The notes below the pieces were generated by a model, which saw nothing but the letters and a program-made list of their open reading frames with translations, was not told the origin of the DNA and ran no database searches. This document shows, piece after piece, positions 7,605 through 54,803 of a stretch of 64,000 bases of DNA. Origin of the DNA: Peptoniphilus genitalis (GTDB lineage: Bacteria > Bacillota > Clostridia > Tissierellales > Peptoniphilaceae); NCBI RefSeq assembly GCF_023614525.1, contig NZ_CP097885.1, forward strand, positions 1,548,501-1,612,500, read 5' to 3'. Position numbers and translations under genes: made by a program. The number at the start of each line of letters is the position of its first letter. Within the stretch, counting starts at the first letter, position 1.

Positions 7605-7810
7605 AATTTTAAAAGAGACTTTGATAAGAAGAGTAGAATCTATAAAATTCTTAGAGAGGAAATGGCTGGTGTAAATTTCCAATTTTATATTTTTGAAAAC
7701 TAACTTGGAGTCCCATAGCAAACTATGGCGTAAGGACGCGTTAAGTCCCTAGAGTTTAATTAAGGTGGAACCACGGTCATCGTCCTTTGGGATGGTGGCT
7801 TTTTTTATTA
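7605..7810 (+). promoter_or_regulatory. T-box leader (threonine)
   Basis: A tRNA-sensing leader of about 200 nt. Stem I features are visible: GATAAGAAGAGTA near the 5' base and AGAGAGGAAATGGCTGGTG at the distal end. The T-box proper AAGGTGGAACCACGG lies at 7762-7776. Its TGGA can pair with a UCCA 3' end, consistent with a U73 discriminator. A candidate specifier ACT (Thr) followed by A occurs near 7700 in GAAAACTAACTTGG. The terminator that competes with the antiterminator spans about 7770-7806. Uncharged tRNA-Thr would allow read-through into thrS. Confidence 0.9.
7770..7808 (+). terminator. T-box terminator
   Basis: The ACCAC...GTCATC-GTCC arm pairs with GGGATGGTGG, followed by seven T. 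Its 5' arm shares the T-box bases needed by the antiterminator. Confidence 0.8.
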
Positions 7811-9774: not shown

Positions 9775-9801
9775 GGCAGGTCTAAAGGGCCTGCTATTTT
9801 T
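9775..9801 (+). terminator. thrS terminator
   Basis: GCAGG (9776-9780) pairs with CCTGC (9790-9794), then TATTTTTG. Confidence 0.8.
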
Positions 9802-9813
9802 GTGGAAATTTTT

Positions 9814-10029
9814 ATAAGTTAATAATTTTTTATAAAGCCAGAGACTTTTATGGATAAGTGAGATATTATAAAGTCATAAGGATTCATAAAGTCATAAAAT
9901 TTTATGAAGTCCTAAAGACTTGCAAGGTCATGGATTTTTACAAGCTTATAAAGATTCATAAAGTCGTAAAATATTATGAGGACATAAAAATTAATAAAGC
10001 CATAAATATTTATAAAATTTCTTTACAAA
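9814..10029. repeat. 18-nt-period degenerate array A
   Basis: About twelve tandem units in exact 18-nt register, unit starts 9814, 9832, 9850 and so on to 10012. Best units read ATAAAGTCATAAAATTTT. Conservation is partial but there is no insertion or deletion. It fills the gap between thrS and the rplU promoter, whose -35 overlaps the last unit. In one frame it translates into a hexapeptide pattern (YKVIKF-like), a by-product of the period. Confidence 0.85.
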
Positions 10030-10050: not shown

Positions 10051-10056
10051 ACATTG

Positions 10057-10124
10057 ATGTAACCGCACAGAATAGGTTTTAAACTTCGGTACCTAGGATG
10101 GCGAGTCTTGTAATGAGGAGGTGC
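10057..10124 (+). promoter_or_regulatory. L21 leader
   Basis: The region between the promoter and the rplU ribosome-binding site carries conserved-looking blocks of the Firmicute L21 leader: GTAACCGCAC, TTTAAACTTCGG, CTAGGATGGCGAGTC and TTGTAATGAGGAGGTG. By family analogy this RNA mediates autoregulation of the L21-L27 operon. Assigned from position and remembered consensus. Confidence 0.7.
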
Positions 10125-16674: not shown

Positions 16675-16707
16675 TATCCCACAGGAGAAATCTTGTGGGA
16701 TTTTTTA
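16675..16707 (+). terminator. Terminator after the rhodanese gene
   Basis: ATCCCACA (16676-16683) pairs with TGTGGGAT (16694-16701), then a T-run. Confidence 0.88.
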
Positions 16708-16901
16708 ACTTATGACTGTTTATTAAGTGATAAGTTGTTGCAAGATAGGATTTTTTAATAAACTCACATTATCTTATGAAGTTGTAGCTTTCCAGCAATT
16801 CATAACATACTATAAAGTTATAAGACCTTACAAAGTTATTAGATATTACAAGGTAATAAGGAATTAAAAAGTTGTAAGATGCTGCTAAGTCATAGTTAAA
16901 A
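16704..16901. repeat. 18-nt-period degenerate array B
   Basis: About eleven units in exact 18-nt register, starts 16704, 16722, and so on to 16884. The clearest are ATAAAGTTATAAGACCTT at 16812 and ACAAAGTTATTAGATATT at 16830. It starts right after the rhodanese terminator and lies upstream of the giant surface-protein gene. The remaining gap to 17354 is AT-rich leader and promoter DNA with no other gene seen. Confidence 0.8.
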
Positions 16902-17180: not shown

Positions 17181-17354
17181 TATTTATTAAGAATAGAAGA
17201 CCATAAAAGTATTTAGTCTATTCAATTAACAGTTCATAAAAATTATTAATTATGAAAAAACTCTTTGGAGGGAGATGGATAAGTAGCAATATATAAGTAA
17301 AATATAAACTAAAAACTTAAAAGAAGTAACTAATCTATAATGAAAGGAGAAATA

Positions 17355-20300
17355 ATGGATAATAAGAGGAAAAAGTTTAACACCAATAGGGTCGCAGCCT
17401 ATGCTCTATCAGGTGTAATGTTAGCAAGCGTTATACCATATAACGTATTTGCTACTAATATGACAGGTACAGAAAAGGCAACTATAGAAGCAGCAGATAA
17501 ACTTGGTATTTCATCACCTAAAATTAATGGAGCTGTAAGAGCTGAAAATACTGATGCTTTATCAAGTGCAACCTACTACAACAAAGCAAACTGGGAAAAC
17601 AAAATCAAAGACAAGTCACGTTGGCCTGTTGGCGACAAACAAAGACTTGTAAGAGTTACTACATCAGACCCAGTCGAAATGAACGACATCGATTACGACG
17701 GGAACTTTGTCGATGCCAACGGCAGGACTGTTCTTAGAATGGTTTACAAGGAAAAGGGTGCAGCAGCAACTGCTGTTTGGTACAGAGCTATATTTAACTT
17801 CGGAGACCTTGATCAATACATCGACTACGACAAGTCCTACATGGTTGGAGTTAATACTCTTGGCAACGAAGCTAAAAAGGGCAATCTAGAGCCCTTTAAT
17901 GACCGTAAGGAAAGAATTGTCGACCTAGGTGTATTGAGAGGGGACTTAACAAACCAAAGAAAGAACCTTCCTATTAACCTTGTATTAAAAGAAGGCGTAA
18001 CAATTAAAGACTTAGGTCAAAAGAACTACATCGTTCAAATGAGACTTGCTGACAAAAAGGGTGAAAGGATCTATGCTTATGCTCCAAAGGGTACATCCAT
18101 GGACTATTCCACTTATACCAAGACAACATCAGTTTCTCTTGAAGATAAGGTGAACAGACTATTTATTAAGGGTGGCTACCAATCAGATGGCAAGAATGCA
18201 ACGGCTCAAGAATTTGTTATGTCCGAATTTATTGCCAATCCAGAGCAATACAAGGACGAAAAGAATCTTGGTATAATCAGGACTCAATATACAGGTCAAA
18301 GAGCTGGAAATGCCGCTTCACCTACAACTGGTGGACAACCAATTGCCTTTACCCAAGCCTTTGATGCTAATCTTCTTAAGTATTTGAAGGCAGATGACAA
18401 AGGCAATGTAGCTTATGTTAACGTTCTTGAAAATACAAGACTTAAGTCAAAATGGTCTAAAAATGTTGGTTTTAAGAAAGACGACTTTAATATAACAAAA
18501 GATGGTAAGCTTGCCTACCTGGTTATTGGTACTCATGACTTCCAAAAAGATGGAGTTAAAAAGGTTGAAATACCAAAACATGACCAACACACTATGATTC
18601 AAGGGTACTACATCACAGCCATTGACTATGTTGTTGACAAATCAAAATTTGAAGATACCTTTGCAGGTAGAGATGAATTGAGCGGCGGTAATAAGACTAG
18701 AAAGCTTAATTACTCAATGATATCTGGCTGGACTAATCCAAATACAGAAGGCTGGGTTGTCTATGAAAAAGAATATAAAGACGGTTATGTAGCTAATGAA
18801 GGCGAATCTTTTATAATAGACACAACTACTGACCCTGCAGACAAGCAAATCATGCTTCAAATCGGTAACGATGATGCCGTCATTAGAAAGCAACAAGGAT
18901 ACTATTCTTACTATATAACTTCTGATAAGGGTATTGAAACCATCGAAAGATATGCAGATGGTATCTATAAGTTTGACCTTAGAGAAGGTGCTACTGTAAA
19001 ACCTGGAGACAAGATAAAAGTTTACATGCCATATGCAAAAGACCATGACAAGCCTGTAAACTTCCTTGAAATCCACAACGGAACAAAGCTAAATGAAGGT
19101 GGAGCAACATTAAAATTACAAAAAGATAGAAATATCAATATGCACCTTTATAAGGAAGGTAAAAAAGGTTACTACATTCTAAAATACACACTTGCAGACG
19201 GAACCAAAGCTGAAAAGAAATTTGAACCTAAAGGATTCTGGAGCTTTGACAATAAAGACAAGGTTATGGATGGAGGTTCAAATTTAGTAACATTATCAAC
19301 AGGTGGTAACTTCTATATCAACACAAAGAAATTAAAACCAGGTGAAGATATAATTGTAGAATCCTATGATGAAAAGGGCACTAAATTAGAAGATCAAACA
19401 TCTTGGTTCAAATATAGAGAACTAACAAAAGCTCAAGATACTGTTAAGGAACTTACATGGACTGACTCCTCAGACAAATCATCAATCCTTTCTATAAACA
19501 AGTCACTTTACACTCCATACCAAGTGCTATTTACAAATGACTATGCAGATGGAACAGATGACTTCTACAAGGATCCAAAGGTATTGCCAGCAAGCAATGA
19601 TGACTTTAAGAAGGACACAAAAGAATTTGTCGGCTACACTAAGTATGACGGTGGTAAGGTAAGAACACTTTACGAAGAAGGTAAAACTGGCAAGCTTTAT
19701 GCAAAAGTTGAAGCTGACGAAAACGAATATGATAAAGATGGTAATTTAGTTGGCAAGGATGTAAGTAAGAAGATTACTATTCCGAAGTCTGATATCTTTG
19801 ACGCTCAGTTTGCAGGAGATAGCAAAGAATATACTGCTTATGAATATAAGGTTGACTTAACAAAGATGCTTCCTTATCATTCAGATGATAAAACTGAAAC
19901 AAAACTAACTTTATTAAAGGATATGAAGTTTGTTTCAACAGCATCAGACGGATCATCACTACCATCTGACCTTTACGAAACAAGAGTTAGGGCAAGAGTA
20001 TTGTTTGATGCAAATACTGGTAAATTGACAGAAGGCGATAAACAAGTTGATAAAGTTGTTAAGATAGCACCAGATAACGTTGATTTCTTCGACCAAAAAG
20101 ACTACAAACCTAATGGTTTTGAAGGTGCAAATGTTAAAAAAGACACTGGTGATAAATTCCCAGAAGCACCAAAACTAGAAGGAAAGAACTTCTTAGGTTG
20201 GGTTACTGAAGAAGGTAAAAAAGCTTTAGGCGACAAGGCAGTTGTTACAGCTGATGACTTTAATAAACTAGCAAAAGAACAAGTCTTTACTAACGAAACA

Positions 20301-23300
20301 CCAATAACAAAACATTTAGTTGTTTACGCTGTTTATTCAGAAGATGTAGCAGTTACTTTTGATGCAAATCAAGGTAAGTTTGGTGATGGTAAGGACACAA
20401 CTAATGTTAAAGTTGAAGGTGGAAATGTAACAAAACCAGCTGACCCAACAAGAGTTGGATATAAATTCTTAGGTTGGGCAGCAACAAAAGATGCAAAAGA
20501 AGCTGATGCTAATATTCTAAATGATGTAACATCACCAAAGACTGTATATGCAGTTTGGGAAAAGACTGCTGAAGAATTAACATTAAATAATCCAACACCT
20601 GTTGAAGTAAAAGACACTAAGAATTTAACTTCAGATGAAAAAGGCAAAGTAGCAGATGCTGTGATTGCAGCTAACCCAACTCTAACAAAAGCTGAAATTA
20701 CAGTTGCAGATGACGGTACAGTTACAGTAAAAACTAAAGATGGCAAGACTGGAACTTTGACACCAGATAAAACTGTAAAACAAAAAGAAGTTCAAAATAA
20801 CTTCAACCCACCAAAAGAACCAGTTAAGGTTGTTGATAAAACAAAACTAACACCTGAAGAAAAACAAGCTGTTAAAAATGCTATTAAGGAAGCTAACTCA
20901 GACAGAAACTTCAAGGATGAAGATATTACAGTAAATGATGACGGATCTGTAAAAATTAACCAAGCTGGTAAGGTAGGTTCATTTACACCTGATCAAACAG
21001 TTGTACAAAAAGATACAATTCTTGATTTGACTGCTCCAGATAAGACTGAAGTAAAAGATATAACAAACTTAACACAAACAGAAAGAGATAAAGTTGCTGC
21101 AGCAGTTAAAGAAGCAAATAAAACTAAGTTAAGCAACGATGCAGTAGTTACTGTTGACGATAAGGGTAATGTAACAGTTACAGATGGTACTAAAACTGGT
21201 AAATTAGAAGGAAAAGACACAGTAAAACCATTTGATAGAGCTGGCAAAACATTAAACGACCCAGCAATAACACCAGTAGGAAATCTTGAAAAACTTAATG
21301 AAACTGAAAAAACAAAAGTAAGAGATGCAGTTAAAGCAGCAAACCCAGACCTTGGATTCGCAGATAACGAAATCCAAGTTGCAGATGATGGTACAGTAAC
21401 AGTACCTATGGGCAAAAACTCTGATGACACAACAAAAACTCAAGAGATCCCAGCATCTAAAACAGTTAGACAAGTAACAGATGCTGATAAGATTATTCCA
21501 TTAAATGTACCAGAAAAAACAAAAGTTGCAGATAAGACAAACTTAACACAAGAAGAAAAGGATAAAGTTAAAGAAGCTGTTAAGAAAGCAAATCCAGATT
21601 TACCAGCAGATGCAAAAATAACTGTAGGAAATGATGGTTCAGTTACAGTAGTATCTGGCGAAGGCGAAAACCAAAAAGTTGGAGAACTTTCACAAGCAGA
21701 TACAGTTGAAGAAATGGCGATTAAAGCTCCAGCAGAACCAGTTAAAGTAGCTGACCCATCTAACCTAACAGAACCTGAAAAGAAAGCTGTTGAAGATGCA
21801 GTTAAGAAAGCAAATCCAAACTTACCAGAAGGTGCAACAATCGAAGTAGGTAAAGACGGAACAGTAACTGTAAAAGACAAAGATGGCAAAGAACTTGGAA
21901 AATTAACTCCAGATAAGACAGTTAAGAAAGCTGATGAAGCAGGAACAGTAGTAGCTCCAGCAGAACCAGTTAAAGTAGCTGACCCATCTAACCTAACAGA
22001 ACCTGAAAAGAAAGCTGTTGAAGATGCAGTTAAGAAAGCAAATCCAGACCTACCAAAAGATGCAACAATCGAAGTAGGTAAAGACGGAACAGTAACTGTA
22101 AAAGACAAAGATGGCAAAGAACTTGGAAAATTAACTCCAGATAAGACAGTTAAGAAAGCTGATGAAGCAGGAACAGTAGTAGCTCCAGCAGAACCAGTTA
22201 AAGTAGCTGACCCATCTAACCTAACAGAACCTGAAAAGAAAGCTGTTGAAGATGCAGTTAAGAAAGCAAATCCAGACCTACCAAAAGATGCGAAAGTAAC
22301 TGTAGGTAATGACGGAACAGTAACTGTAACAGACAAAGATGGAAAAGAACTTGGAAAATTAACTCCAGATAAGACAGTTAAGAAAGCTGATGAAGCAGGA
22401 ACAGTAGTAGCTCCAGCAGAACCAGTTAAAGTAGCTGACCCATCTAACCTAACAGAACCTGAAAAGAAAGCTGTTGAAGATGCAGTTAAGAAAGCAAATC
22501 CAGACCTACCAAAAGATGCGAAAGTAACTGTAGGTAATGACGGAACAGTAACTGTAACAGACAAAGATGGAAAAGAACTTGGAAAATTAACTCCAGATAA
22601 GACAGTTAAGAAAGCTGATGAAGCAGGAACAGTAGTAGCTCCAGCAGAACCAGTTAAAGTAGCTGACCCATCTAACCTAACAGAACCTGAAAAGAAAGCT
22701 GTTGAAGATGCAGTTAAGAAAGCAAATCCAGACCTACCAAAAGATGCAACAATCGAAGTAGGTAAAGACGGAACAGTAACTGTAAAAGACAAAGATGGCA
22801 AAGAACTTGGAAAATTAACTCCAGATAAGACAGTTAAGAAAGCTGATGAAGCAGGAACAGTAGTAGCTCCAGCAGAACCAGTTAAAGTAGCTGACCCATC
22901 TAACCTAACAGAACCTGAAAAGAAAGCTGTTGAAGATGCAGTTAAGAAAGCAAATCCAGACCTACCAAAAGATGCGAAAGTAACTGTAGGTAATGACGGA
23001 ACAGTAACTGTAACAGACAAAGATGGAAAAGAACTTGGAAAATTAACTCCAGATAAGACAGTTAAGAAAGCTGATGAAGCAGGAACAGTAGTAGCTCCAG
23101 CAGAACCAGTTAAAGTAGCTGACCCATCTAACCTAACAGAACCTGAAAAGAAAGCTGTTGAAGATGCAGTTAAGAAAGCAAATCCAGACCTACCAAAAGA
23201 TGCGAAAGTAACTGTAGGTAATGACGGAACAGTAACTGTAACAGACAAAGATGGAAAAGAACTTGGAAAATTAACTCCAGATAAGACAGTTAAGAAAGCT

Positions 23301-24590
23301 GATGAAGCAGGAACAGTAGTAGCTCCAGCAGAACCAGTTAAAGTAGCTGACCCATCTAACCTAACAGAACCTGAAAAGAAAGCTGTTGAAGATGCAGTTA
23401 AGAAAGCAAATCCAGACCTACCAAAAGATGCGAAAGTAACTGTAGGTAATGACGGAACAGTAACTGTAACAGACAAAGATGGAAAAGAACTTGGAAAATT
23501 AACTCCAGATAAGACAGTTAAGAAAGCTGATGAAGCAGGAACAGTAGTAGCTCCAGCAGAACCAGTTAAAGTAGCTGACCCATCTAACCTAACAGAACCT
23601 GAAAAGAAAGCTGTTGAAGATGCAGTTAAGAAAGCAAATCCAGACCTACCAAAAGATGCGAAAGTAACTGTAGGTAATGACGGAACAGTAACTGTAACAG
23701 ACAAAGATGGAAAAGAAATTGGTAAATTAACACCAAAACAAACTGTTAAGGCAGCTGATACTACTCCAGACAATGGAAAGAAGACTCTTCTTCCAACTGA
23801 TGATTACCAAGATACTGGTATAAAAGCAGGAGATGGCGTTGACTCAAATGATATTAGTGCCATTGATGAAGATGGAAGTTATGTACCTGTATATGTAGAT
23901 AATAATGGAAACATTATTGTTAAACCTGGTAAGGATGTTGATGGACCTATTAAGGTTACAATAAATAAGGACGGAAAAGAAAGAGTTATCTTCATAGACA
24001 TCCTTGGACACTCTATGGGACATGATGATAATGGATACAGACCAGGATACTTTGATGGATCATATAACATCCCTGGAATTAGATACAGAGACCACAAGAC
24101 TCCAACTCATCCAGTGACTGTTACAGTTCCAGAAAAGACTGAAACTGGTGTGAAAGTTCGTGACACTTTGTGGTATATATTCCACATCAACGAGTTTGAA
24201 TACGAAGTTGTTAGAAACGGAGTTGTAACTAAGAGATTAATGGACGTAACTCCAGTTCTACAAAATAACAGAACAATGCTACCACTTAGATATGTAGCTG
24301 AAGCACTTCAAGCAGATGTTAAGTGGGATGCAAAGACAAGAACTGCAACATTCACAAAAGATGGTTTGACAGCATCAATCCAAATCGACAGTGATGAAAT
24401 AGTTCTTTCTAACGGCAAGACTGTTAAGATGGACTCTAAGCCACTTAATATCAACGACAGAATCCTAGTTTCTGTTACTAACGTAGCCAATGTATTTGGT
24501 TTAACTAACGGAAATACTAAAGACAAGGCTGATCAAGATATTGAATGGGAACAAAAAGATAAGAGTGCAACAATTTATATTAGAAGATAA
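17355..24590 (+). CDS. Giant secreted repeat protein with C-terminal copper-amine-oxidase-N-like domain
   Basis: 2411 aa from ATG 17355, chosen because AAAGGAG lies five bases upstream; an in-frame ATG at 17340 contains that site. A signal peptide spans about 1-33. A non-repetitive N-terminal region follows (to about 875). Two InlB-B-like (Listeria-Bacteroides) repeats come next, around 880-960 and 1000-1070 (FDANxGKF ... GYKFLGW). Fourteen helix-strand repeats span about 1077-2139, with core LTxxEKxxVxxAVxxANPxL then DGTVTV. The C-terminus (about 2270-2411) is copper-amine-oxidase-N-like: NNRTMLPLRYVAEAL, VKWDAKTRTATFTKDG. No LPXTG or membrane tail, so anchoring is probably non-covalent. An adhesin-like role is inferred. 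Confidence 0.9.
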   Translation: MDNKRKKFNTNRVAAYALSGVMLASVIPYNVFATNMTGTEKATIEAADKLGISSPKINGAVRAENTDALSSATYYNKANWENKIKDKSRWPVGDKQRLVRVTTSDPVEMNDIDYDGNFVDANGRTVLRMVYKEKGAAATAVWYRAIFNFGDLDQYIDYDKSYMVGVNTLGNEAKKGNLEPFNDRKERIVDLGVLRGDLTNQRKNLPINLVLKEGVTIKDLGQKNYIVQMRLADKKGERIYAYAPKGTSMDYSTYTKTTSVSLEDKVNRLFIKGGYQSDGKNATAQEFVMSEFIANPEQYKDEKNLGIIRTQYTGQRAGNAASPTTGGQPIAFTQAFDANLLKYLKADDKGNVAYVNVLENTRLKSKWSKNVGFKKDDFNITKDGKLAYLVIGTHDFQKDGVKKVEIPKHDQHTMIQGYYITAIDYVVDKSKFEDTFAGRDELSGGNKTRKLNYSMISGWTNPNTEGWVVYEKEYKDGYVANEGESFIIDTTTDPADKQIMLQIGNDDAVIRKQQGYYSYYITSDKGIETIERYADGIYKFDLREGATVKPGDKIKVYMPYAKDHDKPVNFLEIHNGTKLNEGGATLKLQKDRNINMHLYKEGKKGYYILKYTLADGTKAEKKFEPKGFWSFDNKDKVMDGGSNLVTLSTGGNFYINTKKLKPGEDIIVESYDEKGTKLEDQTSWFKYRELTKAQDTVKELTWTDSSDKSSILSINKSLYTPYQVLFTNDYADGTDDFYKDPKVLPASNDDFKKDTKEFVGYTKYDGGKVRTLYEEGKTGKLYAKVEADENEYDKDGNLVGKDVSKKITIPKSDIFDAQFAGDSKEYTAYEYKVDLTKMLPYHSDDKTETKLTLLKDMKFVSTASDGSSLPSDLYETRVRARVLFDANTGKLTEGDKQVDKVVKIAPDNVDFFDQKDYKPNGFEGANVKKDTGDKFPEAPKLEGKNFLGWVTEEGKKALGDKAVVTADDFNKLAKEQVFTNETPITKHLVVYAVYSEDVAVTFDANQGKFGDGKDTTNVKVEGGNVTKPADPTRVGYKFLGWAATKDAKEADANILNDVTSPKTVYAVWEKTAEELTLNNPTPVEVKDTKNLTSDEKGKVADAVIAANPTLTKAEITVADDGTVTVKTKDGKTGTLTPDKTVKQKEVQNNFNPPKEPVKVVDKTKLTPEEKQAVKNAIKEANSDRNFKDEDITVNDDGSVKINQAGKVGSFTPDQTVVQKDTILDLTAPDKTEVKDITNLTQTERDKVAAAVKEANKTKLSNDAVVTVDDKGNVTVTDGTKTGKLEGKDTVKPFDRAGKTLNDPAITPVGNLEKLNETEKTKVRDAVKAANPDLGFADNEIQVADDGTVTVPMGKNSDDTTKTQEIPASKTVRQVTDADKIIPLNVPEKTKVADKTNLTQEEKDKVKEAVKKANPDLPADAKITVGNDGSVTVVSGEGENQKVGELSQADTVEEMAIKAPAEPVKVADPSNLTEPEKKAVEDAVKKANPNLPEGATIEVGKDGTVTVKDKDGKELGKLTPDKTVKKADEAGTVVAPAEPVKVADPSNLTEPEKKAVEDAVKKANPDLPKDATIEVGKDGTVTVKDKDGKELGKLTPDKTVKKADEAGTVVAPAEPVKVADPSNLTEPEKKAVEDAVKKANPDLPKDAKVTVGNDGTVTVTDKDGKELGKLTPDKTVKKADEAGTVVAPAEPVKVADPSNLTEPEKKAVEDAVKKANPDLPKDAKVTVGNDGTVTVTDKDGKELGKLTPDKTVKKADEAGTVVAPAEPVKVADPSNLTEPEKKAVEDAVKKANPDLPKDATIEVGKDGTVTVKDKDGKELGKLTPDKTVKKADEAGTVVAPAEPVKVADPSNLTEPEKKAVEDAVKKANPDLPKDAKVTVGNDGTVTVTDKDGKELGKLTPDKTVKKADEAGTVVAPAEPVKVADPSNLTEPEKKAVEDAVKKANPDLPKDAKVTVGNDGTVTVTDKDGKELGKLTPDKTVKKADEAGTVVAPAEPVKVADPSNLTEPEKKAVEDAVKKANPDLPKDAKVTVGNDGTVTVTDKDGKELGKLTPDKTVKKADEAGTVVAPAEPVKVADPSNLTEPEKKAVEDAVKKANPDLPKDAKVTVGNDGTVTVTDKDGKEIGKLTPKQTVKAADTTPDNGKKTLLPTDDYQDTGIKAGDGVDSNDISAIDEDGSYVPVYVDNNGNIIVKPGKDVDGPIKVTINKDGKERVIFIDILGHSMGHDDNGYRPGYFDGSYNIPGIRYRDHKTPTHPVTVTVPEKTETGVKVRDTLWYIFHINEFEYEVVRNGVVTKRLMDVTPVLQNNRTMLPLRYVAEALQADVKWDAKTRTATFTKDGLTASIQIDSDEIVLSNGKTVKMDSKPLNINDRILVSVTNVANVFGLTNGNTKDKADQDIEWEQKDKSATIYIRR
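20585..21725 (+). repeat. Five divergent copies of the surface-protein repeat
   Basis: Coding repeats of about 75-80 aa each, sharing NLTxxEKxKVxxAVxxANP and a DGTVTV strand but diverged in sequence. They begin NPTPVEV, PPKEPVKV, APDKTEV, NDPAITPV and NVPEKTKV. They lie directly before the near-identical block, so they look like an older layer of the same expansion. Confidence 0.85.
21726..23770 (+). repeat. Nine near-identical 228-bp coding repeats
   Basis: Unit starts are 21726, 21954, 22182, 22410, 22638, 22866, 23094, 23322 and 23550, each 228 bp (76 codons) beginning APAEPVKVADPSNLTEPEKK. Two versions alternate: type 1 has ATIEVGKDGTVTVKDKDG (copies 1, 2, 5) and type 2 has AKVTVGNDGTVTVTDKDG (copies 3, 4, 6-9). 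The last copy diverges after KEIGKLTPKQTV. DNA identity is high enough for slippage or unequal recombination, so copy number probably varies between strains. Confidence 0.95.
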
Positions 24591-24605
24591 GTTGTTAATA
24601 ATTAA

Positions 24606-24634
24606 GAGGAACCCTCAGGGGTTCTTCTTTTTTT
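24606..24634 (+). terminator. Terminator of the surface-protein gene
   Basis: GAACCC (24609-24614) pairs with GGGTTC (24619-24624), then TTCTTTTTTT. Confidence 0.85.
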
Positions 24635-24671
24635 ATGCTTATTTAGTCAAATTATTTCACAAACAAGTCCT

Positions 24672-24887
24672 ATGATCTGGCAAGTAAATATGAAGTCATA
24701 ACAAACTATGATGCAATAACAAACCATAAAGTCATAAATAACTATGAAGTAATAAGGAACTACAAAGTCATAAGGGATTAGTACTTTATAAAATTTTATA
24801 AAGTTGTAAAAATATATGAACTTATGAGAATTTATGAAGTTGTAAAAATTTATGAACTTGTGAAAATTTATAAAGTTGTAATAATTT
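24672..24887. repeat. 18-nt-period degenerate array C
   Basis: About twelve units in exact 18-nt register from 24672. Good units: ATAAAGTCATAAATAACT at 24726, ATGAAGTTGTAAAAATTT at 24834, ATAAAGTTGTAATAATTT at 24870. With array B it brackets the surface-protein gene. The rest of this gap (24591-25014) holds only the terminator and the prfB promoter. Confidence 0.88.
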
Positions 24888-24977
24888 ATAATTCAAATTA
24901 AAATAGTTCTAATCAATACATTAAGTCAAATTTTATTCCCATATTACAACAAAATATTAGTGTGATTATAGCAACTG

Positions 24978-31035: not shown

Positions 31036-31766
31036 AAAATATTTTAATAAAAATAAATTACGACGGGACTAACTTTCACGGCTTTCAACTTCAACCAAAT
31101 GATAGGACTGTGGGAGGAGAACTAAATCTTGGAATAGAAAAAACTGTCAAACACCCAGTGAAAATTTTTTACGCAGGTAGAACTGACAGGGGAGTTCACG
31201 CTGAGGGGCAATATGCAAATTTTTATTCCGACACTACAATTGACATCGGAAATCTCCCCAAGGTTTTAAATTTTAACCTGCCAGAAGATGTCTCAGTTGT
31301 TGATGCCAAATATGTTCCCGATGATTTCCACGCAAGATTCGATGCAAAGCTAAAAAAGTATCGCTATGTGGTTTACAGGTCGAGGTACAGGCATGCTCTC
31401 TTACGCAATCGTGCCTATGAATATCCCTATGATGTTGACCCAGCTAGGATGAGGGAGGCACTTGCATCTTTAATAGGAGAGCACGACTTTAATTCCTTTA
31501 TGGGACGAGGTGCCATAGTCAAAGACTCCATTAGGACCATTGAGCGAATTGATGTAATTGAAGATGGAGACTTTTTGTATTTTGACTTTGTGGCAAAGAG
31601 CTTTTTAAAAAACATGATAAGAATTGTAACGGGAACTGTCCTTGAGATAGGACGGGGCCAGAGAGAAATTGAATATATGAAGGAAGCCTTGGAGAAAAAA
31701 TCTCGCAAGGCCGCTGGACCAACAGCACCTGCCTGCGGACTATACTTGTTAGATGTCAAGTATTAG
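31032..31766 (+). CDS. truA: tRNA pseudouridine(38-40) synthase
   Basis: 244 aa. The catalytic Asp is in AGRTDRGVHAEGQ, with the conserved YDGTNFHGFQ at the N-terminus and RFDAKLKKYRYV. It modifies the tRNA anticodon stem. ecfA1-ecfA2-ecfT-truA is a common Firmicute order, but rplM-rpsI, which often follow, are absent. Only a weak hairpin with a T-run (about 31768-31786) marks the end. Confidence 0.96.
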   Translation: MKNILIKINYDGTNFHGFQLQPNDRTVGGELNLGIEKTVKHPVKIFYAGRTDRGVHAEGQYANFYSDTTIDIGNLPKVLNFNLPEDVSVVDAKYVPDDFHARFDAKLKKYRYVVYRSRYRHALLRNRAYEYPYDVDPARMREALASLIGEHDFNSFMGRGAIVKDSIRTIERIDVIEDGDFLYFDFVAKSFLKNMIRIVTGTVLEIGRGQREIEYMKEALEKKSRKAAGPTAPACGLYLLDVKY

Positions 31767-31789
31767 GTCCTCGGGCTTTTTTTATTTTT

Positions 31790-31915
31790 ATGACCTTGTA
31801 GAGTTTAATTCCTTTATAAAGATTTATGACTTGATATTTTCTTACAACTTCATAAGCTTTCACGACTTTATAAATTTTTACAAAGTCATAAAGATCTATG
31901 GCTTAATCCTTTCTC
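31790..31915. repeat. 18-nt-period degenerate array D
   Basis: Seven units in exact 18-nt register, starts 31790 to 31898. Most read as the reverse complement of the array A consensus (ATGACTTGATATTTTCTT, ACGACTTTATAAATTTTT). It lies between truA and the yqhY promoter; nothing else is seen in that gap. Confidence 0.75.
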
Positions 31916-32019
31916 AAAAAGCTAGGGTTTTCTATTAAGTCACAATAAATTAATTTTTTATTCACAGACAATTATACTTTTAAATATCTTATTAAAAAAG
32001 TCATGCAAAGTGCAATAAA

Positions 32020-54576: not shown

Positions 54577-54623
54577 AAATCTAAGTCTATGAATAAAAAA
54601 TATTTCATGGCTTAGATTTTTTT
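54577..54623 (+). terminator. Terminator of the tsa operon
   Basis: AAATCTAAG (54577-54585) pairs with CTTAGATTT (54611-54619), extended inward by CTATGAA / TTCATG, then T. Confidence 0.85.
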
Positions 54624-54803
54624 ATTTAGTAGTAAAAGTTTACAAGCTTATACTTTTGTAAAAAGAAGTAAATTTATGTGAAGTTATAGACTTTTATAAA
54701 GTTACAAGATTTTATGAAGTTATTACTTCTTATAAAGTTAAAAGATTTTATGAAGTCATAATTTTTTACAAGTTGATGAAAACTTGTGGAGTAAAAAATA
54801 AAA
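54624..54803. repeat. 18-nt-period degenerate array E
   Basis: About nine to ten units in exact 18-nt register, starts 54624 or 54642 to 54786. Clear units: ATAAAGTTACAAGATTTT (54696), ATAAAGTTAAAAGATTTT (54732), ATGAAGTCATAATTTTTT (54750). It fills the gap between the tsa terminator and the converging oleate-hydratase-like gene. Confidence 0.85.

What the first reader, a model, noticed from the sequence alone, without database searches (positions are those of the whole stretch)
9814..10029. Intergenic 18-nt-period degenerate tandem arrays (array A and four relatives)
Five gaps (9814-10029, 16704-16901, 24672-24887, 31790-31915, 54624-54803) carry 7-12 units in exact 18-nt register, with no insertion or deletion although bases vary. 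The consensus reads about A(T/C)(A/G)AAGT(C/T)(A/G)TAARATTTT. All lie between transcription units and outside genes. Array D reads mostly as the opposite strand. A fixed period with loose sequence suggests something selects spacing, or slow decay of a replicating repeat. 18 bp is six codons, so open frames with hexapeptide patterns appear, but no strong start supports translation. I know of no described element matching this.
Basis: partly seen in the sequence, partly recalled or inferred. Interest (0 to 1): 0.78.

Follow-up and report, generated by a model that had tools for sequence, protein, structure and literature searches.

The report
Intergenic 18-bp dyad-site arrays in Peptoniphilus
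Between the genes of a small group of human-associated Peptoniphilus bacteria lie dozens of short DNA arrays that repeat a loose mirror-image motif every 18 letters and seem to be missing from the part of the chromosome that is copied last, which suggests landing strips for an unknown DNA-binding protein that marks or organises the chromosome.

Summary
All five arrays beat 1000 of 1000 shuffles at lag 18 and are the five strongest lag-18 places in the window. They belong to a genome-wide family: at least 47 strong arrays, about 500 units, 0.46% of the genome, nearly all intergenic. Of 130 family genomes searched, 4 have it, all Peptoniphilus: this species, G003 (P. vaginalis), G012 (P. harei), and one array in G002. 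The unit is a dyad-symmetric, degenerate 14-bp core TTAYRA-NN-TYRTAA plus a 4-nt spacer with little preferred sequence but nearly fixed length. Half-sites do not covary, which speaks against a selected hairpin. Between arrays the spacers are randomised while the core persists; that argues for selection on core and spacing rather than slow decay. In three related species the catalogued arrays avoid 360-410 kb around the replication terminus, as Noc and SlmA sites do. Best reading: tandem sites for an unidentified dimeric DNA-binding protein that coats DNA in 18-bp steps and marks the chromosome. Binding symmetry is well supported; protein and role are inferred. The catalogue is not exhaustive.

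The parts
9806..10016 (+). Array A: about 11-12 units of TTAYRANNTYRTAA+4 nt, between the thrS terminator and the promoter/L21 leader of the next gene (taken as rplU from that leader)
   Evidence: array detected in 3 of 14 Peptoniphilus genomes at this locus, not in the other 11
16707..16895 (+). Array B: about 10 units, between a rhodanese-domain gene and a 2416-aa aRib surface-protein gene
24665..24891 (+). Array C: about 12 units, two blocks with different spacer families, between the aRib protein gene and a peptide chain release factor gene
31765..31952 (-). Array D: about 7-10 units, motif majority on the minus strand, between a tRNA pseudouridine synthase gene and an Asp23-family gene
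   Evidence: orthologous array in G003
54628..54792 (+). Array E: about 9 units, in a convergent gap between a TsaD-family gene and an MCRA-family gene
   Evidence: orthologous array in G003
9775..9802 (+). Terminator-like hairpin with T-run that ends just before array A
   Evidence: read from sequence
16678..16706 (+). Terminator-like hairpin with T-run abutting array B
   Evidence: read from sequence
24605..24634 (+). Terminator-like hairpin with T-run before array C
   Evidence: read from sequence
54578..54626 (+). Terminator-like hairpin with T-run abutting array E
   Evidence: read from sequence

Best explanation
Each array is a row of about 5-17 closely packed binding sites for one dimeric DNA-binding protein. 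SHOWN: the core TTAYRA-NN-TYRTAA is two-fold symmetric even in its tolerated variation (T/C with A/G), sits in an 18-bp register, recurs at about 50 mostly intergenic places, and in the catalogue is avoided around the replication terminus in three related species. INFERRED: a protein dimer reads each 14-bp dyad; the 4-bp gap lets neighbouring dimers touch, so that they coat 100-300 bp cooperatively. That would explain why single sites may be degenerate while their spacing is kept. INFERRED further: because the arrays lie mostly in gaps between terminator and promoter, over the chromosome except the terminus, the bound arrays act as chromosome marks, in the manner of the Noc and SlmA nucleoid-occlusion sites or of a nucleoid-organising protein, rather than as operators for the neighbouring genes.
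For: Dyad symmetry: the PWM correlates 0.89, 0.91 and 0.84 with its own reverse complement at one offset, against a median of 0.14-0.22 over all 18 offsets, in three species. No excess complementarity between half-sites, so the symmetry is not base-pairing. The spacer is near background in sequence but nearly fixed in length. Core identity is nearly the same within (0.58-0.63 at lags 1-4) and between arrays (0.573) while spacer similarity is lost between arrays. Between G000 and G003 orthologs the core changes less than the spacer, 0.157 vs 0.218, p = 2e-4. Small indel:substitution ratio lower than in flanks. The annotated neighbours in the window are unrelated genes, mostly housekeeping; gaps are tandem, divergent and convergent. 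Terminus: the array-free segment contains the GC-skew flip in G000, G003 and G012, and 10 stretches of 20 kb sampled in each hold no intergenic array; P about 1e-4 under uniform placement in G000. Noc: about 70 sites, 14-bp palindrome; SlmA: 24-52 sites; both under-represented in Ter (PMC4726725, passages read).
Against: No binding protein was identified. No ParB/Noc paralog follows the arrays: each of 14 Peptoniphilus genomes has one strong ParB, and the weaker further hits occur with and without arrays. The arrays change faster than the flanking intergenic DNA (core 0.157 vs 0.100), so any per-site constraint is weak. The core-spacer difference is not significant in 2 of 3 species pairs (p = 0.10, 0.48). 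The three species share many orthologous arrays, so terminus avoidance is not three independent results, and it rests on capped searches plus sampled stretches; my stretches outside the terminus were chosen to have no hits and so give no contrast. Most of the genus lacks the arrays, so whatever they do is dispensable there. RNA folds of the arrays are somewhat more stable than shuffles.
Confidence: 0.45

Rival explanations
1. BIME-like topological insulator: the arrays are bound by gyrase, HU or another universal nucleoid protein between transcription units and absorb supercoils or separate neighbouring promoters; the clade specificity lies in the DNA, not in a special protein.
For: 36 of 44 gene 3' ends facing strong arrays have a terminator-like hairpin before the array, and 45 of 48 start codons facing arrays lie 80 bp or more away (no baseline computed). 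YR steps in the core are flexible DNA (general knowledge). BIMEs hold regularly spaced extragenic repeats bound by several proteins (PMC2817692, passages).
Against: A universal nucleoid protein would not be expected to demand a symmetric 14-bp core with a near-exact 18-bp register. 18 bp is not a multiple of the helical repeat. The terminus avoidance is not obviously predicted.
Confidence: 0.25
2. Neutral or selfish minisatellite: units multiply by slippage and recombination and decay by mutation, and the register is only what is left of duplication.
For: Clear duplication history: lag-2 units are more alike than lag-1; near-identical units (>=17/18) occur in 12 (adjacent) or 15 (lag 2) of 114 arrays; of 16 gaps of 17 nt or more inside G000-G003 array alignments, 9 are multiples of 18 and 5 more are within 1 nt of one. 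The arrays evolve faster than their flanks.
Against: Different arrays have unrelated spacers but the same core; the core is dyad-symmetric in its variation; indels are scarce relative to substitutions; the arrays keep almost wholly out of genes and, in the catalogue, out of the terminus region.
Confidence: 0.15
3. RNA-level element: transcribed arrays fold into hairpins that terminate or stabilise transcripts.
For: Predicted RNA folds are on average more stable than dinucleotide shuffles (mean z -2.0 over 62 strands of 31 arrays); the arrays often follow terminators; 4 of the strong arrays hold a terminator-like hairpin inside.
Against: Half-site pairs are no more complementary than independence predicts, and positions 4-11 are less so. 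Arrays also sit in divergent gaps and past terminators, in both orientations. The fold stability may follow from any near-palindromic repeat.
Confidence: 0.07
4. Clustered operators of a regulator controlling the adjacent genes.
For: Dyad sites of transcription-factor size; arrays sit upstream of many genes; 75 exact 14-mer sites in the genome against 2 for the reversed control pattern.
Against: About 50 arrays of about 10 sites each, in the window beside unrelated genes and also in a convergent gap. Presence of the array varies between close relatives at otherwise conserved promoters (3 loci looked at). Of 40 exact sites scanned, 15 are coding and 12 isolated intergenic, several of these plain AT-rich palindromes.
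Confidence: 0.08

Closest known systems
Noc binding sites (B. subtilis) and SlmA binding sites (E. coli)
   Same: Dispersed palindromic protein-binding sites; a 14-bp palindrome for Noc; a few dozen loci; under-represented around the terminus (PMC4726725, passages).
   Different: Here the sites come as tandem 18-bp arrays; the sequence is AT-rich and degenerate; no Noc-type ParB paralog follows the arrays; the binding protein is unknown.
REP/BIME elements
   Same: Extragenic, many copies, palindromic, regularly spaced in clusters, suggested role in chromosome organisation (PMC2817692, passages).
   Different: The dyad here shows no pairing constraint; the unit is 18 bp with a 4-nt free spacer rather than a 20-40 bp palindromic repeat (REP length from the abstract of PMC3733652 in the listing).
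Iteron arrays of plasmid centromeres (parC/ParR, omega repressor heptads) (recalled, no call)
   Same: Tandem short sites at a fixed pitch, coated cooperatively by a dimeric protein.
   Different: Those are one or a few loci per replicon; here there are about 50 chromosomal loci with a degenerate 14-bp dyad.
Intergenic minisatellites/VNTRs (recalled)
   Same: Tandem units; unit number differs between species.
   Different: Spacer randomised and core kept; symmetric variation; about 50 dispersed loci share one core.

Membership tests
Nucleoid-occlusion sites (Noc/SlmA) | Palindromic site (14 bp for Noc) recognised by the protein | tested here: met
   Dyad-symmetric 14-bp core; the sequence is not Noc's (recalled), and protein binding itself was not tested
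Nucleoid-occlusion sites (Noc/SlmA) | Under-represented around the terminus | tested here: met
   Array-free 360-410 kb containing the skew flip in three related species; species not independent, catalogue capped
Nucleoid-occlusion sites (Noc/SlmA) | Cognate Noc (ParB paralog) encoded in the genome | tested here: not met
   One strong ParB_N hit per genome in all 14; the weaker further hits do not track the arrays. SlmA (TetR family) not tested
Nucleoid-occlusion sites (Noc/SlmA) | Bound protein inhibits division over the nucleoid | not testable with these tools
   needs experiments
REP/BIME | Palindrome that forms a hairpin | tested here: not met
   No excess of complementary half-sites in 1021 distinct units; but whole-array RNA folds are somewhat more stable than shuffles
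REP/BIME | Associated RAYT (TnpA_REP) transposase | not tested
REP/BIME | Extragenic, high copy, regularly spaced | tested here: met
Neutral minisatellite | All positions of the unit decay alike | tested here: not met
   Core identity kept and spacer identity at composition level between arrays; ortholog rates differ significantly in 1 of 3 pairs
CRISPR array | Near-identical repeats separated by unique spacers, with cas genes | tested here: not met
   Degenerate units with 4-nt gaps; at G002's one array locus a CRISPR-type repeat array and cas1 lie beside it
Rfam families | Match to a covariance model | tested here: not met
   Only a T-box and an L21 leader in the window, neither inside an array

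The most novel reading that the evidence does not exclude
A clade-specific chromosome-marking system: about 50 arrays of tandem 18-bp dyad sites, about 500 sites in all, form protein filaments at quiet gaps over the whole chromosome except the terminus region, doing by a multi-site filament and an unrelated protein what Noc or SlmA do at their sites (or an equivalent segregation or compaction task).
Probability: 0.3. Interest if true: 0.85.

Novelty: new variant of a known kind. Interest (0 to 1): 0.68.

Why it matters
If right, a group of human-associated anaerobic cocci carries a chromosome-scale DNA mark that I found described nowhere in my searches, and whose code (dyad plus near-exact 18-bp pitch) can be read from sequence. 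It makes a direct test possible: pull the protein out with the array. It would also show how a genome-wide binding system arises in one clade while near relatives live without it. Even if the function proves to be insulation or a selfish repeat, the presence and absence of arrays at the same gaps in sister species is a clear natural experiment.

Tried and rejected
Protein coding: 9 of 46 strong arrays have one frame free of stops throughout (36 of 920 shuffles do), so the unit does favour an open frame; but 37 of 46 have a stop in every frame, and ortholog substitution rates by position modulo 3 are flat at 0.177, 0.169, 0.165. A weak short open frame is called inside the array of L008 and another inside its G003 ortholog L069; I take these as by-products of the repeat. 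RNA/cruciform hairpin: disfavoured by the lack of half-site covariation, although RNA fold energies are lower than shuffles. Helically phased DNA bending: 18 bp is not a multiple of about 10.5, so not pursued. Oriented element: array orientation is not significantly tied to gene direction (20 vs 12, 15 vs 8, 9 vs 7) or to replication direction (27 vs 19). Noc paralog: none that follows the arrays. Carriage by phages or plasmids: no exact-pattern hit in viral contigs; array C alone, by blastn, no match in plasmids or phages. Mobile insertion with a clean footprint: not seen at the three loci aligned (rplU, L041, L012); at L012 the alignment suggests that the array replaces an AT-rich stretch that G003, G012 and G002 share. 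Isolated exact 14-mers as regulator sites: in the 28 loci scanned (20 fetched around such sites, 8 held earlier), 15 of 40 exact sites were coding, 13 in arrays and 12 isolated intergenic; this led to one strong array missed before (726,490-726,733) and no clear regulator. Literature searches gave nothing on such arrays (listings only).

Limits: the profile search scored only 150 of 3699 first-look candidates in this genome and 44 per genome in the family search, so weak arrays are missed. Of the 20 spaced 20-kb stretches of this genome (chosen without hits), two held short segments inside called genes and a third held one cut at a stretch end at about 709,960-710,000 after retraining (not followed, it may be the edge of an array). 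About 178 kb of the 378-kb terminus gap was covered only by the pattern and profile searches. In G012 I fetched by my count 28 of about 34 hit clusters; in G003 all of about 39. In seven genomes (G010, G002, G013, G006, G004, G007, G001) the rplU locus was stored in the other orientation, so the gap text printed for those is the wrong one; the array scan reads both strands. Functions of genes beside arrays were looked up only in the window and at G002 and G013. Fisher and Spearman tests treat aligned sites as independent, which overstates their strength.

Full report
OBSERVATION. The five arrays are real. Lag-18 identity in A-E is 0.535, 0.522, 0.697, 0.546 and 0.531 against shuffle means of 0.31-0.34; no shuffle of 1000 reached any of them, and a scan of the whole window ranks these five first. 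Lag 36 is stronger still in all five. A cyclic 18-state HMM with insert, delete and background states, trained on the five, decodes exactly five arrays in 64 kb without an inserted base. Dinucleotide shuffles of array regions give no hit in 276 trials, 108 kb.

GENOME-WIDE FAMILY. The window is bases 1,548,501-1,612,500 of a single 1,917,962-base contig. A two-unit pattern with up to 3 mismatches hits 31 times in this genome, 57 in G003, 39 in G012, 2 in G002, 1 in G013 and 0 in the other 36 of 41 genomes searched; the reversed control pattern gives one hit in all, in G035. A sequence-only profile gives 134 matches at E<=0.1 in this genome, with 150 of 3699 candidates scored. The HMM on the fetched stretches gives 50 segments and about 498 units. 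Retrained with the sampled stretches it gives 53 segments, 46 of at least 40 bits. Four of the 53 overlap a called gene by more than 40 bp: two weak ones lie inside genes and are probably noise, one strong array overlaps a gene end by 64 bp, and one carries a weak short frame of its own; one further weak segment is cut at a stretch end. One more strong array (87 bits) came to light later. The 46 segments of at least 50 bits cover 8.7 kb, 0.46% of the genome.

DISTRIBUTION. An exact two-unit pattern over 84,980 species genomes hits 6 stretches, all of Peptoniphilus vaginalis (5) or P. harei (1) (records of the window's own genome may be left out there). In 130 family genomes the profile hits 4: G000, G003, G012 and, with one array, G002. 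G013's single pattern hit decodes to a weak 49-bp segment. G000, G003 and G012 form one clade (support 1.000) with G002/G013 as sister (0.999) on two gene fragments. Viral contigs have no exact pattern hit; array C has no blastn match in plasmids or phages.

ANATOMY OF THE UNIT. The 18 positions are TTAYRA-NN-TYRTAA plus four. In G000 the information per position is 0.27-0.98 bit in the core and 0.28, 0.07, 0.06, 0.11 bit in the spacer; G003 and G012 give similar matrices. The matrix resembles its own reverse complement about the core centre (r = 0.89, 0.91, 0.84; median over offsets 0.14-0.22), including the shared T/C and A/G tolerance. A count without any model, on units of A-E cut at a fixed 18, agrees in the main: mean pairwise identity by column 0.37-1.00 in the core with peaks at positions 6 and 12, and 0.38-0.53 in the spacer. 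In 1021 distinct units the two half-sites vary independently: complementary pairs 0.614, 0.717, 0.600, 0.464, 0.310 and 0.804 observed, against 0.618, 0.712, 0.596, 0.501, 0.335 and 0.796 expected. The symmetry is therefore not pairing; a dimer reading double-stranded DNA is the simplest cause. Against this, RNA folds of 31 arrays are somewhat more stable than shuffles, mean z -2.0.

SELECTION OR DECAY. Core identity is 0.58-0.63 between units 1-4 apart within arrays and 0.573 between arrays; spacer identity is 0.45-0.53 within and 0.375 between, where composition alone gives 0.389. Spacers thus carry local duplication history and nothing shared, whereas the core is common. Small indels are rare: 13, 22 and 16 events in about 513, 401 and 314 units, though the HMM finds only arrays that hold register. 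Between orthologous arrays (27 matched pairs, G000-G003) substitution per site is 0.063 in coding, 0.100 in flanking intergenic, 0.157 in core and 0.218 in spacer. Core versus spacer is significant in that pair (p = 2e-4) and not in the other two (p = 0.10, 0.48); information per position and ortholog rate correlate negatively (rho -0.56, -0.59, -0.30; p = 0.016, 0.009, 0.23). Small indels per substitution are 21:520 in arrays against 51:513 in flanks (p = 6e-4); the other pairs give p = 0.006 and 0.24. Per base the indel rate is only modestly lower (about 0.007 vs 0.010); the ratio is lower chiefly because arrays have more substitutions. Against my reading: the arrays evolve faster than their flanks, so single sites are weakly held; a redundant row of sites would behave so, but this is an inference.

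DYNAMICS. Twenty-seven arrays of G000 pair automatically with a G003 array by both flanks, 18 with a G012 array; flanks of G000-G003 pairs matched on both sides are mostly 88-95% identical. Of 16 gaps of 17 nt or more inside G000-G003 array alignments, 14 are within 1 nt of a multiple of 18; in the two pairs with G012 the fit is looser. At thrS-rplU the array is found in 3 of 14 genomes and not in 11; G008 and G009 keep a terminator and the promoter without it. At the L041 locus 2 of 14 and at the L012 locus 1 of 14 have it. At L012 the alignment suggests that the array takes the place of an AT-rich stretch shared by G003, G012 and G002. Since its units are already diverse, I infer that it came by recombination from another lineage rather than by fresh duplication.

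PLACE. Strong arrays lie in tandem (32), divergent (8) and convergent (6) gaps in G000. Of 44 gene 3' ends facing strong arrays, 36 have a terminator-like hairpin before the array; of 48 start codons facing arrays, 45 lie 80 bp or more away (no baseline computed). In the window the neighbours are thrS, a gene with an L21 leader (hence rplU), a rhodanese-domain gene, an aRib surface protein, a release factor, a tRNA pseudouridine synthase, an Asp23-family, a TsaD-family and an MCRA-family gene. Orientation follows neither genes nor replication significantly.

TERMINUS. dnaA is at 957,957. Of 47 arrays (>=35 bits) none lies farther than 789 kb from it, of 959 kb possible; counts in ten equal distance bins are 3 7 5 4 8 5 7 7 1 0; P = 1e-4 if uniform. 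The GC skew of the sampled stretches changes sign between 40 and 60 kb, inside the array-free gap from 1748 kb through the start of the contig's numbering to 208 kb. In G012 the skew flips at 1300-1320 kb inside the gap 1156-1563 kb, and in G003 at 420-435 kb of C1 inside a gap of about 214-580 kb. Ten 20-kb stretches in each of the three gaps hold no intergenic array, although they hold 20, 20 and 21 intergenic regions of 200 bp or more; one short segment inside a gene was seen in G000 and one in G003. My ten stretches outside the gap were chosen without hits, so they are no contrast; the contrast is the catalogue. Because the species share arrays this counts as one observation seen three times. 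Noc and SlmA sites show the same avoidance (PMC4726725, passages). A Noc-type paralog that tracks the arrays was looked for and not found.

MECHANISM. I commit to an unidentified dimeric protein that reads each 14-bp dyad and coats the array in 18-bp steps, marking the chromosome outside the terminus. Binding symmetry and spacing: likely (about 0.75 by my judgement). Chromosome-scale role: about 0.4. The main rival is a BIME-like insulator bound by general nucleoid proteins.

LITERATURE. Searches (listings) brought nothing on such arrays in Peptoniphilus or elsewhere; the RepRanger paper (PMC12306157, term search of its text) does not mention Peptoniphilus. The library lacks most subscription papers. 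Remarks on iterons, VNTRs and DNA flexibility are from memory.

Noticed in passing
17340-24590: 2416-aa surface protein with 14 aRib stretches; an internal 228-bp repeat (21725-23735, 8.8 copies, 97% matches) suggests length variation; it is flanked by arrays B and C.
   Followed up: partly
21440-23773 (-): 777-aa open frame antisense to the 228-bp repeats, probably open only because the repeat is.
   Followed up: no
7612-7790 and 10051-10118: T-box leader before thrS and an L21 leader before the next operon.
   Followed up: no
L101:1147-3156: The only array found in G002 lies just after a CRISPR-type repeat array (cas1 upstream) and before a class II tRNA synthetase gene with an editing domain (proS-like); G003 and G012 have an array with cross-matching flanks, so it may have travelled with the CRISPR locus.
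   Followed up: partly
L033 and L015, also L091, L107, L108, L118, L119: Several arrays sit in gaps whose flanks are themselves paralogous repeats, cross-matching between loci on both strands; an FMN riboswitch lies at L033:489-601.
   Followed up: no
L064 (G000:C1:1110001-1130000): Only 52% of bases in called genes and higher GC (0.397); possibly an rRNA cluster, not checked.
   Followed up: no
L213:1491-1734 (G000:C1:726490-726733): A strong array (87 bits) missed by the capped profile search, found through exact 14-mer sites.
   Followed up: partly
L061:19960-20000 (G000:C1, about 709,960-710,000): A weak array segment cut at the end of a fetched stretch; it may be the edge of an uncatalogued array.
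   Followed up: no
L008:2914-3147 (-) and L069:2949-3134 (+): Short weak open frames called inside orthologous arrays of G000 and G003, probably a by-product of the 18-bp repeat.
   Followed up: partly
L101:5038-5259: A 73-aa PC4-domain gene directly after the synthetase gene beside the array of G002.
   Followed up: no
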